Assembly: GCA_022827265.1 (NCBI GenBank)
Contig: JAJDTF010000091.1
Span: 1-64,000 of the forward strand
DNA from: Acidimicrobiia bacterium
GTDB taxonomy: Bacteria; Actinomycetota; Acidimicrobiia; Acidimicrobiales; Poriferisodalaceae
Direction: 5' to 3'
DNA length: 64,000 bases
Shown: one piece after another, positions 17,193 to 25,122 of the stretch
Layout: every line of letters starts with the position of its first letter
Position numbering within the stretch: the first letter of the stretch is position 1
Notes under the pieces: model-generated
The model's database searches: none
Seen by the model: only the letters and a program-made list of their open reading frames with translations
Told to the model about the DNA's origin: nothing
Program-made: the position numbers and the translations under genes

Positions 17193-18071
17193 TCATGGCC
17201 CCAGAGCCAAGCCGACAGTCAGCAGCGCGCCCACCACGATCTGCAGGCGGCCGGTTGCGGCGAGCACCCCCACCAGCGCAGCACCGGTGGCGCCGCGGAC
17301 CACAGCGCGAACGGGCGCGACAGCAAACGCGACGGCGGCGAGCCCCAGCATCGTCCACGGCCGCAGCAGCGACAGGTACATGGGCGAGAACACCATCAGC
17401 ACCACGACCACCGCGTACATCGCGCGGGTGGGGCCGTCGCCCAGCCGGACCGCCAGCGTGCGCTTGCCGGCCTGCGCGTCGGTCGGCAGGTCGCGCAGGT
17501 TGTTCGAGATGAGCAGCGCCACCGAGCCCAGCCCCACCGGGATCGACGCAGCGATGCCCAGCATGGTGATGCGGGCGTCCTGCACGAACGCCGATCCTGC
17601 CGTCGCCACCAGGCCGAAGAAGACGAATACGAACGGCTCGCCGAGACCCCGGTAGCCGTATGGATGTCGGCCGCCGGTGTAGTACCACGCTGCGAGCATC
17701 GACGCCCCACCGGCCACGATGAGCCACCACGACACGGCTGCTGCCACCGCGATGCCGAACACGGCGGCTACGCCGAAGGCTGCGAACGCTGCGTTCCGCA
17801 CTGCGGCCGGCGACGCCGCCCCCGAGGCCACCAAGCGCTGCGGGCCCACCCGGGCCACATCGGTGCCCCGCACCCCATCGCTGTAGTCGTTGGCGTAGTT
17901 GACGGCGATCTGGATGCACAGCGACACGATCAGCGCGAACGCGGCTCGCCACCACACGATGCCGCCGTCTGCTGCGGCATCGGACGCCGCGGCGCCCACG
18001 AAGGGCGGCACCAGCGACGCCGGCCAGGTGCGAGGCCGTGCCCCGGCCAGCCACGTGCGCAGGCCCGTCAT
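17193..18071 (-). CDS. menA: 1,4-dihydroxy-2-naphthoate polyprenyltransferase MenA
   Basis: A membrane UbiA-family prenyltransferase of 292 residues that joins DHNA to a polyprenyl diphosphate to make demethylmenaquinone. The first Asp-rich motif is NYANDYSDGVRGTD (58-71) and the second is NNLRDLPTDAQAGKRTLAVRLG, both typical of MenA. Eight or so hydrophobic helices are visible. The ATG at 18071 forms an ATGA overlap with the stop of the thioesterase gene, which argues for a shared transcript and possibly a shared pathway. Confidence 0.96.
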   Translation of the reverse strand: MTGLRTWLAGARPRTWPASLVPPFVGAAASDAAADGGIVWWRAAFALIVSLCIQIAVNYANDYSDGVRGTDVARVGPQRLVASGAASPAAVRNAAFAAFGVAAVFGIAVAAAVSWWLIVAGGASMLAAWYYTGGRHPYGYRGLGEPFVFVFFGLVATAGSAFVQDARITMLGIAASIPVGLGSVALLISNNLRDLPTDAQAGKRTLAVRLGDGPTRAMYAVVVVLMVFSPMYLSLLRPWTMLGLAAVAFAVAPVRAVVRGATGAALVGVLAATGRLQIVVGALLTVGLALGP

Positions 18072-18901
18072 TGCTGCGGCGAGCCCAGCGGGCCCGTGAT
18101 GCGTGTGATCGCGAACGACTGAGTGCCGGTGGCCAGCAGTCCCCCATCGGAGGCATAGATGCGAACGATGCCGTTGCCGATGGCGTTGTGCACGGCGTCC
18201 GATTCGATGTCCAGGAGCACCCATTCGCTCTCGGCCTCACCGGAGATCCGCACCGTGTTGTCGAGGCTGGACCCCCTGAACCCGGCATCGAGACTGACGC
18301 GCATCCCGCTCGGCAGCAGGTCGGCCAGCGCCGTCAGGCCCGGCCCGGTCGATGCCAGCGTGCCGTCGAGGCGCGCCCAGTACCGCACGTGGCGCTCGCC
18401 CGGCTGCTGCCCGGCGAGCCGGATGTCTGCGTGGTCGGTGAACGAGCGGCCTTCGATCGACGTCGGGCCGCGGGGCTCGCATACCTCCGGCGGCGGCACG
18501 TCCGGGGCGGTCGTCCACGTCTGGTCGATGCCCAGCTGCCGACCGCCGAGGGACACGAGCGCACGCAGGATGACCCGGCCGTCGGCAGCATCGGTGATCT
18601 CAGCGGAGGCCTGGGTCATGCGGTTGCCGCTGGCGCCGATATCGAGTGCGACGGCCGCGCATCCGTCCACCGGCAGCCGCGCCAGGTATTGGGCCGATGC
18701 AGCGGCCATCGGCCGGCCGGTGACGCTTTCGAGGGCCGCCACGGCGGCCGCAAGCGCGCACCCGCCATGCAATGTGCCCGTGGCACCGGCCACGTCGTAG
18801 GTGACCGGCAGCATCCAGCGCAACTCTTCGGCCGTCGACTCGAGACCGAAGAACTCGATCACCTCGCCGACGTGCGGATCCTGCGGCGCAGCATCACTCA
18901 T
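18068..18901 (-). CDS. Double-hotdog acyl-CoA thioesterase-like protein
   Basis: 277 residues. The first half (TLHGGCALAAAVAALE, SAQYLARLPVDGCAAV, GNRMTQASAEITDAADGRV) looks like a PaaI/4HBT hotdog. The second half (HVRYWARLDGT, ALADLLPSGM, SLDNTVRISGEAESEWVLLDIE, GNGIVRIYASDGGLLATG) looks like the TesB-type hotdog, so it is a fused pair as in acyl-CoA thioesterase II. The start at 18901 (MSDAAPQD) was chosen by domain length. It is translationally coupled to menA, so hydrolysis of 1,4-dihydroxy-2-naphthoyl-CoA is a reasonable but unproven suggestion. Fatty acyl-CoA hydrolysis is the alternative. Confidence 0.85.
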   Translation of the reverse strand: MSDAAPQDPHVGEVIEFFGLESTAEELRWMLPVTYDVAGATGTLHGGCALAAAVAALESVTGRPMAAASAQYLARLPVDGCAAVALDIGASGNRMTQASAEITDAADGRVILRALVSLGGRQLGIDQTWTTAPDVPPPEVCEPRGPTSIEGRSFTDHADIRLAGQQPGERHVRYWARLDGTLASTGPGLTALADLLPSGMRVSLDAGFRGSSLDNTVRISGEAESEWVLLDIESDAVHNAIGNGIVRIYASDGGLLATGTQSFAITRITGPLGSPQQ

Positions 18902-18986
18902 CGCAGCCTCGGCGCTCACGCAGCCGAAAGCTAGTGCTGCCGAGACTGCGGACACGGGTCCAAGGCGCGCACCGGCGCGCCCAGAC

Positions 18987-19583
18987 TCAACCTGCAGCGG
19001 CGGCCCAAGGGGCAGATTGGCCGGCTTGGTAGTGGTCGGGCCGGATGCCGAAGGCTTCGATCATCCGATGCCAGCCGCTGCAGACCGCGAGCAAGGCGCC
19101 GAGCCGCAGGATCTGCTGCTCGTTGAAGTGTCGCTGCAGCCGCTCGTAGTGCTCGGGCGGGATCTTCCCCGAATGCTCCTGTCCGGAGAGCCAGTCGGCC
19201 AAGGCGAGCGCAGCTTTCCAGCCGTCGTCGAGATCGGAGTTCTCGTAGTCGTCCAGCTTGGCCACGACCTCGTCGGTCAGCCCAGTGCGCACCAACGATG
19301 CGCTCTTGACCAAGCTTCAGTGGAAGCACTCGTTGCGGTTCGCCATGCGGATGCGGCACATCTCGAGCATGTGACGATCGAGCGCTCCGGGGTCTTCTTC
19401 GGGCGTGCCTCCGTACACCGTGCCCACCCAGCCCAAGAACATGTCCATCGTCGTCCCGTCCGCAGCCAGCGTCCGGAACAGGTTGTCGTCGGTGTAGGCC
19501 TTCGCGTACCACGTGTCCAAGCGGCGTTGCTGCTTGTCGTCCAGCTCGCTCACCTTCGGCAAGTAGCCGTGCTCATTCGCCAT
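18987..19583 (-). CDS. Candidate selenoprotein: carboxymuconolactone decarboxylase/AhpD-like with CxxU
   Basis: Read through one in-frame TGA (19319-19317), this is a single 198-residue protein with a GAGGGGAAG ribosome binding site before the ATG at 19583. The first 88 codons include MLEMCRIRMANRNECFH. After the TGA, SLVKSASLVRTGLTDE, LDDYENSDLDD and WKAALALADWL continue in the same frame with the usual AhpD/CMD helices. In that family the redox motif is C-x-x-C; here it reads Cys86-Phe-His-UGA89, so selenocysteine would replace the second Cys. No other stop interrupts the next 108 codons. A hairpin fitting a bacterial SECIS follows (19275-19311). Likely role: peroxide or thiol redox enzyme. 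A plain nonsense mutation is the alternative; no sel genes are in the window. Confidence 0.72.
19275..19319 (-). other. UGA codon and putative bacterial SECIS hairpin
   Basis: After the TGA the minus strand folds as a nested hairpin. The outer arms are GGTCA (19311-19307) and TGACC (19279-19275); the inner arms are GCGCA (19303-19299) and TGCGC (19291-19287). They close a 7-nt loop TCGTTGG with its first G 21 nt after the TGA. Bacterial SECIS elements need a loop G about 16-37 nt downstream, so position and shape agree. Folding was done by eye. Confidence 0.6.
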
Positions 19584-19762
19584 GACTTCCCCTCGACGGC
19601 CGCGGTCCGCTGTAAACGACGCTACCGCACCCTCCGCCTGGGTGGCCGATTGCGGCCCGGCCGCGATCGGCGGCGGCGGGCACGCGTTTGCGGCGACGCG
19701 CCTAATCTCGGCAGCGTCAAGCGAAGCCACTCACGTGGCCGCACTACGCGAGGGGGCGTGAC

Positions 19763-20854
19763 ATGAAGGCTGCTGTGCTCTGCGAACAGCCGGGCGACTT
19801 GGAGCTCGAGGACTTGCGCATCGACGCGCCGGGGCCGAACGAGGTGCTCATCCAGACTCTGGGCGCCGGTCTGTGCCACAGCGATCTGCACTTCATGGAA
19901 GGGCTGTTCCGGACGCCGCTTCCCATGGTGATGGGCCACGAGTCGGCCGGTGTGGTGGAGGCCGTGGGCAGCGACGTGAGCTACGTGAAGCCCGGCGACC
20001 ACGTCGTTGCGTGCCTGTCGATCTTCTGCGGCCAGTGCCGTCGCTGCCTGTCGGGCAACCCGCACCGTTGCACCAATGTCCGGGCCACCTCCCGGTCGAG
20101 AGATGCCGCAGCCCGGCTGACCCGCGAAGACGGCACTTCGGTTGACCAGATGGCTCGGCTCGGCGGCTTCGCCGAGCAGATGCTGGTGCATCAGAACGCT
20201 GTCGTGAAGGTGCGTCCCGACATGCCGCTCGACCGGGCGTGCCTGATCGGCTGCGGCGTGACGACGGGCTTCGGTGCAGCGGTCAACACCGCAGGCGTCG
20301 GCGTGGGCAGCGTGGTGTGCGTGATCGGCTGCGGCGGCATCGGCCTGTCGGCTGTGCAGGGCGCCCGGGTGGCGGGTGCCGGCCGCATCATCGCCGTGGA
20401 CATGACCGAGGCGAAGCTTGAGACCGCCCGCCAGATGGGCGCCACCGACACCGTGAATGCCGCCGAGGTGGACGACGTGGTGACCGCCGTGAAGGACATG
20501 ACCAAGGGCGGCGTGGAGTACAGCTTCGAAGCCATCGGCCTGGCCACCACGGTGCAGCAGGCGTTCAACATGCTTGACATCGGCGGCACGGCCACCGTGA
20601 TCGGCATGGTGCCGTCGAAGACGAGAGTGGAGCTGCGAGGCATCGACTTCCTGTCGGAGAAGAAGCTGCAGGGCTCGATGATGGGTTCGAACCAGTTCCG
20701 CAGCGACATCCCGATGATGATCGACCTCTACCTCGACGGCCGCCTCATGCTCGACGAGATGATCTCGGCGCGCATCGACCTCGAGCAGATCAACGAGGGC
20801 TACGGCTGGATGAAGGCCGGCGAGGCCACCCGCACCGTCATCACCTTCGACTGA
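19763..20854 (+). CDS. Zinc-dependent alcohol dehydrogenase (class III-like MDR)
   Basis: 363 residues of the medium-chain dehydrogenase/reductase family. Catalytic zinc ligands are Cys38 (GLCHSD), His59-Glu60 (MGHESAG) and the Cys in LIGCGVTTG. The structural-zinc lobe Cys89-x2-Cys92-x2-Cys95-x7-Cys103 is complete. The Rossmann motif is VIGCGGIGLSAVQGA followed by an acidic VDMTEAK, which points to NAD(H). The long loop with CGQCRRCLSGNPHRC and its spacing are like formaldehyde/NDMA-type dehydrogenases, but the substrate is unknown. A GAGGGGG sequence precedes the ATG. The gene is divergent from the candidate selenoprotein gene. Confidence 0.92.
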   Translation: MKAAVLCEQPGDLELEDLRIDAPGPNEVLIQTLGAGLCHSDLHFMEGLFRTPLPMVMGHESAGVVEAVGSDVSYVKPGDHVVACLSIFCGQCRRCLSGNPHRCTNVRATSRSRDAAARLTREDGTSVDQMARLGGFAEQMLVHQNAVVKVRPDMPLDRACLIGCGVTTGFGAAVNTAGVGVGSVVCVIGCGGIGLSAVQGARVAGAGRIIAVDMTEAKLETARQMGATDTVNAAEVDDVVTAVKDMTKGGVEYSFEAIGLATTVQQAFNMLDIGGTATVIGMVPSKTRVELRGIDFLSEKKLQGSMMGSNQFRSDIPMMIDLYLDGRLMLDEMISARIDLEQINEGYGWMKAGEATRTVITFD

Positions 20855-22065: not shown

Positions 22066-25000
22066 GTGAATCCACAGGCCGCGGTCGACGTGAACGCCGT
22101 CGTCCGCAGGCTCTGCGATCGCAACGATCCAGGCCGGACCGAGGCCACCGTCCAGTCGGACATCCGCCTCCTGCTGATCGCCTCGGGACTCAACATTGCC
22201 GACGACGACATCCTCGATGTGACCTTGGAAGCCCCACTCGGCGACCGCCGCAGGATCGACATCGAGATCGGACGAACCGTCATCGAGGTCAAGAGATCGC
22301 TCGCCAGCGGTGCGTCGCTCGAAGACGCGACTGCGCAGCTGAGCGGCTACGTCGCCCAACGCGAGCGCCAACTCAGTCAGCGCTACGTCGGAATCGTCAC
22401 GGACGGCTGCGACTGGCACCTCTTCCACCATGTCGAAGACGGCCTCAGGCCGGTGGCCGTGCACAAGGCGGATCTCGCGTACCCGGAACCCGAGCCGCTG
22501 ATCACATGGCTCGCCGCAGTGCTAGCCACGCAGCACGAGGTCGTTCCGACCCGTGAGGCGCTGTCGAGTCGGCTCGGTGCAGACAGCCCTGGGCATGAAC
22601 TCGAGCGCGTCGCGCTGCGCGAGATGTACGAAACGAACCGAGGCAATCCGGAAATCCGGATCAAGCGAGAGCTGTGGGCCAAGCTCCTGACGACGGCGCT
22701 CGGTACGCAATTCGGCGACAACGAAGACGGCCTCTTCGTCGAGCACACTCTTCTCGTCGCCACCGCCGAGTGCGTGGCACACGCAGTGCTCGGCTATCCG
22801 ATCACCCAGCTCACGCCGGCCAGCCTGCTGCGTGGCGAGCTGTTCGGACAGCAGTCACAGATACACGGAGTCGTGGACCACGATTTCTTCGACTGGCCCC
22901 TCAACTGTGGCGAGTCTGGCACCGTGTGGATCGCAGCTCTCGCGAGGCGCCTGCAACAGTTCGATTGGTCGAACGTGACGCATGACGTCATGAAGACGAT
23001 CTACGAGTCGGTCATCGGCGTCGACACTCGAAAGCGGCTCGGTGAGTACTACACGCCTGACTTTCTGGCCGAAGCCATGATCGAAGAAGTCGTGACCGAT
23101 CCTGTGCAGATGACGGTCTTGGATCCCAGCTGCGGCTCTGGCACGTTCCTCTTTCACGCAGTGCGCGGCTACTTGGCGGCCGCCGAGCGCGCCGGCATCG
23201 CCAATGGAGAAGCTGTGGCAGGAGTTGCTCAGCGGGTTTTCGGCGTCGATGTGCATCCGGTGGCGGTGACGCTGGCTCGCGTCACCTATCTGCTCGCAAT
23301 CGGCGCCGAGCGGCTGTCAGCGTCCGACAGAGGGCCGCTGAGAATTCCCGTATTTCTCGGCGACGCGCTCCAATGGGGGCAACGTGGCGACATGTTTGCG
23401 TCCGAAACGCTCAACGTGGCCACGAGCGACGGTGCACACCTGTTTGCCGACCAGCTTCGGTTCCCTCAGGCCCTCTTGGCCGATGCCGATCGCTTCGACG
23501 CGCTCGTGTCTGATCTTGCGGAGACGGCCACGACACGCGAACCCAGCTCTCGTCCCACCGTCTTTGCTTCGATTGCGAATCGACATGGTCTCTCTGAAGC
23601 GGATGCCGTCACCGTGCGCGCCACTTTCGAGGCCATGTGCCGCCTTCACGATGAGCGCCGCGACCACATCTGGGGCTACTACGTCCGCAATCTGGCCCGC
23701 CCCGCTTGGCTGGCGCTGCCGGACAATCGCTGTGATGTCTTGATCGGCAATCCGCCATGGCTGGCGTACCGGCACATGACAGAGTCCATGAAGGTGATTT
23801 TTCGCGAAATGTCGACCACACGTGGACTGTGGTCGGGCAGGCATGTCGCGACGCATCAGGATCTCGCCGACTTGTTCGTCGTCCGGGCTGTGGAGCAATA
23901 CCTGCGGGACGACGGGCACTTGGCGTTTGTCATGCCGGCCGGAGTGCGAACGAGAGCACAGTCGGAGGGGCTTCGCGCAGGTCGGTACGCGGTCGGGAAG
24001 AGTGACAATGTGTGCATCAACTGGCGGATGCCTTGGGAGCTGTCGGACATCAGTCATACCTTTTTTCCTCGTACGGCCTGCGTCGTGTTCGGCACAAGAT
24101 CTCGTGAAGGCCAGACGCTCGCTCCCCAGTTCGAGCGGTGGACAGGCAAGCTGCACAACCCGAACGCCGATTGGGACTCCGTCCGCGCCGCCCTCTCGCG
24201 CACGGTTCAGGTTGACGAATCTGTCGAAGCAACCCAGCCGTTGTCGCCCTACAAGCCAATATTTCGAAACGGGGCCAACATTTACCCCCGTCTCTTGACG
24301 ACAGTCAAACCAGACGTGGCACCGCCGCTCGGCGCCGGGTCCGGCCGTCGGGCCGTGCGCTCGGACCGTGGGATATATGCCAAGTATGCATGGAAGACAC
24401 TGCCTGATCTACGCGGAGTAGTGGAGCAGGAGTTTGTGTTTCCTCTCCTGATGGGCGAGTCGGTCCTTCCATTCATGCAACGGCAGCCGATGGAAGCGCT
24501 GCTCCCGTTCGACGGAAGAAAGATGCTGGACGACGCGGGTATCGACGCTCATGAAGGTCTCGCACGCTGGTGGCAGGCAGCGTCATCTCTCTGGGATGAG
24601 CACGCCGTCTCATCACTGAGCTTGCAAGAGTCGTTGGACCATTACGGCAAGCTCTCGTCGCAATACCCCCTCTCGGGAATACGAGTCGTGTGCGCTGTCT
24701 CGGGCATGCACGTCACCGCATGCCGGGTGACTGCCCCGGATGCGCTGGTCGAGCATCAACTCGACTGGGCACCGATGCGTTCAGTGGAAGAAGCCCAGTA
24801 TCTGTGCGCTGTCCTGAACAGCGCAGCTGTCACCAAGGCCGTCGAGCCGTACATGGTCTCGGGAAAGGGAGGCGGACGCCACATCGGGTCGCACCTCTGG
24901 AAGCTGCCGATACCTCTCTACGACAGCCTCAACCGCCTACATCGCAATCTGGCATCTCTCGGTGCCGAGGCAGAGCGATTCGTGGCAACACTCGAGATTC

Positions 25001-25122
25001 CGGAGATGAGGGCCCACGGCAGAATGCGCGCCCGAGTCAGAGAGTGCCTCGCATCGAGCGATCTCGGCCCCAAAATCGAGCAAGCCGTCGCGGAACTCTT
25101 CAAGATGCCGCTTCGTGCGTGA
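22066..25122 (+). CDS. Type IIG-like restriction-modification enzyme (single polypeptide)
   Basis: 1018 residues. An N-terminal PD-(D/E)xK-type nuclease is suggested by RRIDIEIG (Asp65) and VIEVKR (Glu74-x-Lys76). A helical linker is followed by the gamma-type N6-adenine methyltransferase core: GEYYTPDFLAEAMIEE, motif I DPSCGSGTFLFHA from 353, and motif IV NPPW at 562-565. The C-terminal ~350 residues, with ISHTFFPRTACVVF and GGRHIGSHLWKLPIPL, resemble the target recognition domain of Eco57I-like enzymes. One protein would methylate and cut DNA, acting as phage defence. No separate R, S or M gene is adjacent. G+C is a little below that of its neighbours, which suggests horizontal transfer. 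Confidence 0.85.
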   Translation: MNPQAAVDVNAVVRRLCDRNDPGRTEATVQSDIRLLLIASGLNIADDDILDVTLEAPLGDRRRIDIEIGRTVIEVKRSLASGASLEDATAQLSGYVAQRERQLSQRYVGIVTDGCDWHLFHHVEDGLRPVAVHKADLAYPEPEPLITWLAAVLATQHEVVPTREALSSRLGADSPGHELERVALREMYETNRGNPEIRIKRELWAKLLTTALGTQFGDNEDGLFVEHTLLVATAECVAHAVLGYPITQLTPASLLRGELFGQQSQIHGVVDHDFFDWPLNCGESGTVWIAALARRLQQFDWSNVTHDVMKTIYESVIGVDTRKRLGEYYTPDFLAEAMIEEVVTDPVQMTVLDPSCGSGTFLFHAVRGYLAAAERAGIANGEAVAGVAQRVFGVDVHPVAVTLARVTYLLAIGAERLSASDRGPLRIPVFLGDALQWGQRGDMFASETLNVATSDGAHLFADQLRFPQALLADADRFDALVSDLAETATTREPSSRPTVFASIANRHGLSEADAVTVRATFEAMCRLHDERRDHIWGYYVRNLARPAWLALPDNRCDVLIGNPPWLAYRHMTESMKVIFREMSTTRGLWSGRHVATHQDLADLFVVRAVEQYLRDDGHLAFVMPAGVRTRAQSEGLRAGRYAVGKSDNVCINWRMPWELSDISHTFFPRTACVVFGTRSREGQTLAPQFERWTGKLHNPNADWDSVRAALSRTVQVDESVEATQPLSPYKPIFRNGANIYPRLLTTVKPDVAPPLGAGSGRRAVRSDRGIYAKYAWKTLPDLRGVVEQEFVFPLLMGESVLPFMQRQPMEALLPFDGRKMLDDAGIDAHEGLARWWQAASSLWDEHAVSSLSLQESLDHYGKLSSQYPLSGIRVVCAVSGMHVTACRVTAPDALVEHQLDWAPMRSVEEAQYLCAVLNSAAVTKAVEPYMVSGKGGGRHIGSHLWKLPIPLYDSLNRLHRNLASLGAEAERFVATLEIPEMRAHGRMRARVRECLASSDLGPKIEQAVAELFKMPLRA

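What the first reader, a model, noticed from the sequence alone, without database searches (positions are those of the whole stretch)
18987..19583. Candidate selenoprotein of the AhpD/carboxymuconolactone decarboxylase family with a CxxU active site
Two open stretches on the minus strand lie in the same frame and are separated by one TGA (19319-19317). Read through, they give one 198-residue protein with intact family helices on both sides. The TGA falls exactly where the family has the second Cys of its C-x-x-C redox motif (Cys86-Phe-His-TGA). Replacement of just that Cys by Sec, with no other lesion in 108 following codons and a strong ribosome binding site at the ATG, is what a selenoprotein looks like. 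AhpD-like selenoproteins are a known class, but one in this kind of actinobacterium, next to a thioesterase-menA operon, is worth attention.
Basis: partly seen in the sequence, partly recalled or inferred. Interest (0 to 1): 0.9.

Follow-up and report, generated by a model that had tools for sequence, protein, structure and literature searches.

The report
A selenium-containing AhpD-like redox protein
A gene in a marine/sponge-type actinobacterium uses an internal UGA 'stop' codon to insert the rare amino acid selenocysteine into the active site of an AhpD-like redox protein; the evidence is very strong, and it adds a so far unnamed branch to a class of selenoproteins that is already known.

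Summary
The finding holds. Window 18990-19583 (minus) encodes a 198-residue protein with one in-frame UGA at codon 89, in a C86-F-H-U89 motif. All 35 orthologues found in 148 related genomes (about 40-99% identity, own genome included) carry UGA at that column; none has Cys there. More distant AhpD-like homologues have Cys (49) or UGA (22) in the column.

A hairpin starts 13 nt after the UGA and meets the published bacterial SECIS rules. In 30 genomes of the family the five codons around its loop show no synonymous variation, while the rest of the gene varies freely. More distant orthologues keep the stem by compensatory changes.

The genome has tRNA-Sec, selA, selB and a selD that is itself UGA-encoded. 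All 35 genomes with the gene have selA.

It is best explained as a selenocysteine thiol/peroxide oxidoreductase of the AhpD-like superfamily. Four of five M. tuberculosis AhpD relay positions match (Glu74, Cys86, His88, Sec89 for Cys133); His137 is Lys/Arg. It falls below every curated family cut-off tested, so it is an unnamed, Sec-only subfamily of a known kind. The catalytic role is inferred, not tested.

The parts
18990..19583 (-). Coding sequence of the AhpD-like selenoprotein, 198 residues with Sec at 89; terminal stop TGA at 18987-18989
   Evidence: one reading frame; start and approximate length (189-204 residues) conserved in 35 orthologues
19317..19319 (-). UGA codon read as selenocysteine (residue 89)
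   Evidence: UGA in the same column in 35/35 orthologues; Cys or UGA in the column in other homologues
19326..19328 (-). Cys86 codon, first residue of the C-F-H-U redox motif
   Evidence: invariant
19287..19303 (-). Bacterial SECIS hairpin GCGCAUC-GUU-GGUGCGC; apical loop begins 20 nt after the UGA
   Evidence: fold; no synonymous variation over codons +5 to +9; compensatory pairs
19588..19594 (-). Probable ribosome-binding site GAGGGGA
   Evidence: read from the sequence; purine-rich stretch kept in the genus
18068..18955 (-). Acyl-CoA thioesterase (4HBT_3 family) directly downstream
   Evidence: PF20789, PF13622; a thioesterase gene follows in 27 of the 29 other family loci L021-L049
17193..18224 (-). 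menA, 1,4-dihydroxy-2-naphthoate polyprenyltransferase (true start probably inside this ORF)
   Evidence: NF004751, 336 bits, over cut-off; downstream in loci of the same genus
19763..20854 (+). Divergent zinc alcohol dehydrogenase gene (nearest to NDMA- and mycothiol-dependent models, below their cut-offs)
   Evidence: conserved divergent neighbour in most family loci

Best explanation
The gene encodes a selenoprotein of the AhpD-like superfamily. UGA-89 is decoded as selenocysteine by the cell's SelA/SelB/SelC/SelD machinery, directed by the hairpin that starts 13 nt downstream in the reading frame. The product is inferred to be a small, mainly helical thiol/selenol oxidoreductase: Sec89, at the position of M. 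tuberculosis AhpD Cys133, would attack a peroxide or disulfide substrate, and Cys86 (Cys130) would resolve the selenenyl-sulfide, with Glu74 and His88 (Glu118, His132) in the proton relay and Lys/Arg93 in place of His137. The UGA, its column, the hairpin and the sel genes are shown; Sec insertion follows from them by established knowledge. The chemistry and the substrate are inferred (about 0.6 for a peroxide/disulfide role).
For: UGA in the same column in 35/35 orthologues at about 40-99% identity; in the wider sample of 90 homologous domains the column is Cys in 49 and UGA in 31, 9 of these from the query clade. Purifying selection on both sides of the UGA. Hairpin meeting the bSECIS rules of PMC13188914: 7-bp stem, GUU loop, 20-nt spacing, -10.3 kcal/mol. 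Codons +5 to +9 have zero synonymous variation in 30 genomes; over +4 to +10 relative synonymous diversity is 0.19 against 0.89 elsewhere, permutation p about 1e-5. Compensatory pairs, 100% of cells paired. tRNA-Sec, selA, selB next to it, selD with its own Sec codon. selA present in all 35 carriers, Fisher p 1.8e-7 ignoring phylogeny. Homology to AhpD-like structures 2ijc/2o4d, E 5e-10 to 8e-10 with the profile, and to PF02627 in 12/12 members.
Against: No protein or selenium measurement. The own sequence alone is below the Pfam CMD gathering score (16.6 against 23). The AlphaFold model from a shallow alignment is poor (pLDDT 47), so the fold is not shown. His137 of AhpD is not conserved. The fold of the 56-nt stretch alone is not unusual (z -0.72). 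The most distant orthologue (L066) has a different, weaker hairpin. Rfam has no match.
Confidence: 0.95

Rival explanations
1. Pseudogene or assembly/sequencing error: the TGA is a lesion in an ordinary Cys gene.
For: A Cys codon (TGC/TGT) becomes TGA by one change.
Against: The same TGA in 35 genomes, about 40-99% identical, with conservation on both sides and silent changes dominating; no Cys version in the clade.
Confidence: 0.01
2. UGA is read as another amino acid (code change or Trp/Cys suppression), not selenocysteine.
For: The frame stays open if UGA is read as any residue.
Against: Neighbouring genes and this gene itself end in TGA; tRNA-Sec, selA, selB and selD are present; the hairpin downstream of this UGA is under selection.
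Confidence: 0.02
3. The UGA is mainly a regulated stop: under low selenium an 88-residue fragment is made or the mRNA is lost, and the full-length protein is a minor, selenium-responsive product.
For: UGA/Sec decoding is generally inefficient and selenium-dependent (established knowledge, not tested here).
Against: The C-terminal half is as conserved as the first, so the full-length protein is what selection sees. This does not exclude the main explanation.
Confidence: 0.1
4. Same selenoprotein, but not a peroxidase or disulfide reductase: a reductive dehalogenase-like or other specialised thiol enzyme, as the AhpD-like debrominase Bmp8 is.
For: Bmp8 (6ohi/6ohj) is among the few solved homologues.
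Against: The similarity to Bmp8 is weaker than to PA0269-type peroxidase-like proteins; no gene context for halogenated compounds was seen.
Confidence: 0.06

Closest known systems
AhpD-like selenoproteins with CxxU (AhpD-like 1/2 of the GOS survey, PMC2398784; catalogue of PMC13188914: TIGR01926, PF02627, NF041047, NF041238)
   Same: CxxU active site with Sec in place of the second Cys; same superfamily
   Different: Below the curated cut-offs (TIGR01926 27 of 81.8 bits, NF041238 22.9 of 175, PF02627 16.6 of 23; NF041047 not hit); has an invariant His before Sec (C-x-H-U) that none of the other homologues examined has
NF053654 YciW-related (seleno)protein from groundwater
   Same: Best NCBIfam hit, also annotated as a (seleno)protein
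   Different: 33.4 bits against a cut-off of 310, and only residues 64-167 align
M. tuberculosis AhpD and P. aeruginosa PA0269 (2o4d), AhpD-like family
   Same: Glu74, Cys86, His88 and position 89 fall on Glu118, Cys130, His132, Cys133 (PMC3141380); profile E 5e-10 to 2ijc and 7.5e-10 to 2o4d
   Different: Sec for Cys133; Lys/Arg for His137, which PMC3141380 reports as invariant in the solved members
Debrominase Bmp8 (6ohi)
   Same: Same superfamily, detectable sequence similarity (E 0.00015 alone, 0.001 with the profile)
   Different: Weaker similarity than PA0269; no shared gene context seen

Membership tests
Bacterial selenoproteins | In-frame UGA at a column where homologues have Cys | tested here: met
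Bacterial selenoproteins | SECIS hairpin after the UGA: 3-9 nt loop, 4-16 bp stem, G in first two loop positions, 16-37 nt spacing, MFE at most -7.5 kcal/mol (PMC13188914) | tested here: met
   3-nt GUU loop, 7 bp, 20 nt, -10.3 kcal/mol; selection on it
Bacterial selenoproteins | Genome encodes tRNA-Sec, SelA, SelB and SelD | tested here: met
Bacterial selenoproteins | Full-length product that contains selenium | not testable with these tools
   needs 75Se labelling or mass spectrometry
AhpD-like family (PF02627/AhpD core) | Significant sequence homology to family members | tested here: met
   2ijc, E 5e-10; PF02627 in 12/12 orthologues, best 3.5e-11
AhpD-like family (PF02627/AhpD core) | Own sequence over the Pfam gathering score | tested here: not met
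   16.6 bits against 23
AhpD-like family (PF02627/AhpD core) | C-x-x-C (or U) preceded by the relay Glu | tested here: met
   Glu at U-15 in 35/35; Cys at U-3 in all
AhpD-like family (PF02627/AhpD core) | His four residues after the second Cys (His137) | tested here: not met
   Lys 30, Arg 5; but Arg is also the commonest residue there in the other homologues
AhpD-like family (PF02627/AhpD core) | All-helical AhpD fold | tested here: inconclusive
   helical model, but pLDDT 47
AhpD-like family (PF02627/AhpD core) | Peroxidase or disulfide reductase activity | not testable with these tools
   needs purified protein
NCBIfam TIGR01926, NF053654, NF041238 | Score over the curated cut-off | tested here: not met

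The most novel reading that the evidence does not exclude
A Sec-only AhpD-like subfamily (C-x-H-U, Lys/Arg for His137) that has specialised away from general peroxide reduction, for example selenium-dependent reductive dehalogenation by a Bmp8-like enzyme, or repair of an acyl or quinone-linked peroxide in concert with the neighbouring thioesterase and menaquinone genes.
Probability: 0.07. Interest if true: 0.65.

Novelty: new member of a known kind. Interest (0 to 1): 0.36.

Why it matters
It is a clear, well-conserved selenoprotein subfamily in an actinobacterial class for which the paper library held no dedicated selenoprotein study. It is over the cut-off of no curated model tested, so automatic annotation will probably split it into two fragments or call it a pseudogene (inference). 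The clade is Sec-only within a superfamily that otherwise swaps Sec and Cys repeatedly, which makes it a useful test of why some active sites never revert to Cys.

Tried and rejected
Pseudogene, assembly error and code change were rejected. The AlphaFold model from 13 close sequences was too poor for a fold search, so none was run. Rfam gave no match at the hairpin. Single-sequence folding of 56 nt was uninformative (z -0.72); the comparative tests decided. The first alignment of SECIS stretches had ragged ends and was replaced. One script failed and was corrected. No paper on Bmp8 was held, so what Bmp8 does rests on the PDB title and my own knowledge.

Full report
Observation. The reverse strand of 18990-19583 reads MANEHGYLPK...NECFH*SLVKSASL...AAAAG with one TGA, codon 89 at 19319-19317. 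The terminal stop at 18987-18989 is also TGA, so the same codon has two meanings in one gene. 109 codons follow the internal TGA.

Conservation of the UGA. A search of 148 related genomes with the read-through protein found 35 orthologues, own genome included; every one has one TGA inside the gene, always at column 89. One listed extra TAG (G022) is that gene's terminal stop. Thirty are in the window's family (about 60-99% identity) and five in three other families of the order (about 40-53%); a 36th was met later, G796. Third-position and silent changes dominate on both sides of the TGA, and amino-acid identity is about the same before and after it. The loci come from named Acidimicrobiia MAGs and are probably in part the same genomes, so I do not count them again. 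Nine of the 38 genomes of the family lack a close copy; several of these are incomplete.

Homologous column. In a wider sample drawn from order, class and phylum I read the residue at the column in 90 homologous domains: C-x-x-C in 49, C-x-x-U (TGA) in 31, and 10 without the pair. Nine of the 31 are rows of the query clade, and a few loci were fetched twice. A tree of 89 rows puts the query clade together, 14 rows all Sec, support 99/98, and needs several Sec/Cys exchanges elsewhere, at least four forced by well-supported branches.

SECIS. After the UGA come 13 nt and then GCGCAUC-GUU-GGUGCGC. The rules in PMC13188914 are a 3-9 nt loop, 4-16 bp stem, G in the first two loop positions, 16-37 nt from UGA to loop and at most -7.5 kcal/mol; here they are 3, 7, G first, 20 and -10.3. 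More telling, codons +5 to +9 (AGC GCA TCG TTG GTG) are identical in all 30 family genomes, although Ser, Ala, Leu and Val have four to six codons each; relative synonymous diversity over +4 to +10 is 0.19 against 0.89 in the rest of the gene, p about 1e-5 by shuffling columns (relatedness is not modelled, but it applies to the whole gene alike). In the other families the stem is kept by paired changes: GCUCAUC-GUU-GAUGAGC in L062 and GUUCAUC-GUU-GAUGGAC in L065; all 112 cells pair, with two pairs changed on both sides, and sliding the partner destroys this. The furthest orthologue, L066, has another sequence with a weaker possible hairpin at about the same place.

Machinery. The genome (3.8 Mb, 163 contigs, 93% complete) has tRNA-Sec with anticodon TCA, selA and selB next to each other, and selD. 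selD has its own TGA at SHGAG-U-ACKLG, the known Sec/Cys site of SelD (the site from my own knowledge). selA is over its cut-off in 101 of 148 relatives; all 35 carriers of the gene have it, and none of the 47 others carries the gene. Part of that link is shared ancestry.

What the protein is. No curated model tested claims it: Pfam CMD 16.6 bits of 23, TIGR01926 27 of 81.8, NF053654 33.4 of 310, NF041238 22.9 of 175. With the clade as a whole the relation is clear: PF02627 hits 12/12 members, and the solved AhpD-like proteins 2ijc/7xw1/2o4d match at E below 1e-9. PMC3141380 gives the M. tuberculosis AhpD relay as Glu118, Cys130, His132, Cys133, His137. By spacing from the motif these are Glu74, Cys86, His88, Sec89 and Lys/Arg93 here; the first four are invariant in 35/35. 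His88 next to Sec is found in none of the other 71 motif-bearing rows examined. Arg in place of His137 is common in Cys homologues too, so it is not a result of having Sec.

How it would work (inferred). A selenolate at 89 attacks peroxide or disulfide; Cys86 resolves it; an external thiol reduces the pair. The reductant and the substrate are unknown. The neighbours are a divergent alcohol dehydrogenase and a downstream acyl-CoA thioesterase in most family loci, and menA in the genus; this is conserved context but does not name a pathway.

Place among known things. AhpD-like CxxU selenoproteins are in the Sargasso Sea and GOS surveys (PMC1088965 in the list; PMC2398784) and in the 2026 catalogue (PMC13188914). 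This is therefore a new, unnamed, Sec-only subfamily of a known kind. The paper library held no dedicated study of Acidimicrobiia selenoproteins, which says little about subscription journals.

Noticed in passing
L082 (G000:C39:37080-38033, minus): selD of the same genome is itself a selenoprotein gene: in-frame TGA at SHGAG-U-ACKLGP, with a possible SECIS GCGCAG-GUU-CUGCGC whose loop starts about 33 nt later.
   Followed up: partly
L126, L132, L135, L136, L138, L139: An AhpD-like selenoprotein gene (CNYU) lies close to a paralogue with D-P-Y-F in place of C-x-x-C; this looks like a catalytic/non-catalytic pair.
   Followed up: no
L129 and L099: Close relatives with CVVU (G741) and CVVC (G447) at the same column, both in genomes that keep selA: a recent Sec/Cys exchange.
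   Followed up: partly
L070, L071, L078, L130, L140: Another AhpD-like selenoprotein clade (C-H-[IV]-U); in L070, L071 and L078 the SECIS-like hairpin CUGCAUC-GGC-GAUGCAG sits at about the same distance from the UGA as here.
   Followed up: partly
L050 3594-4513 compared with window 18068-18987: Several close relatives have two tandem thioesterase genes between the selenoprotein gene and menA; the window has one directly downstream, as if one copy was lost.
   Followed up: partly
window 22066-25122 (+): Long ORF that looks like an Eco57I-type DNA methyltransferase/restriction protein (read by eye only).
   Followed up: no
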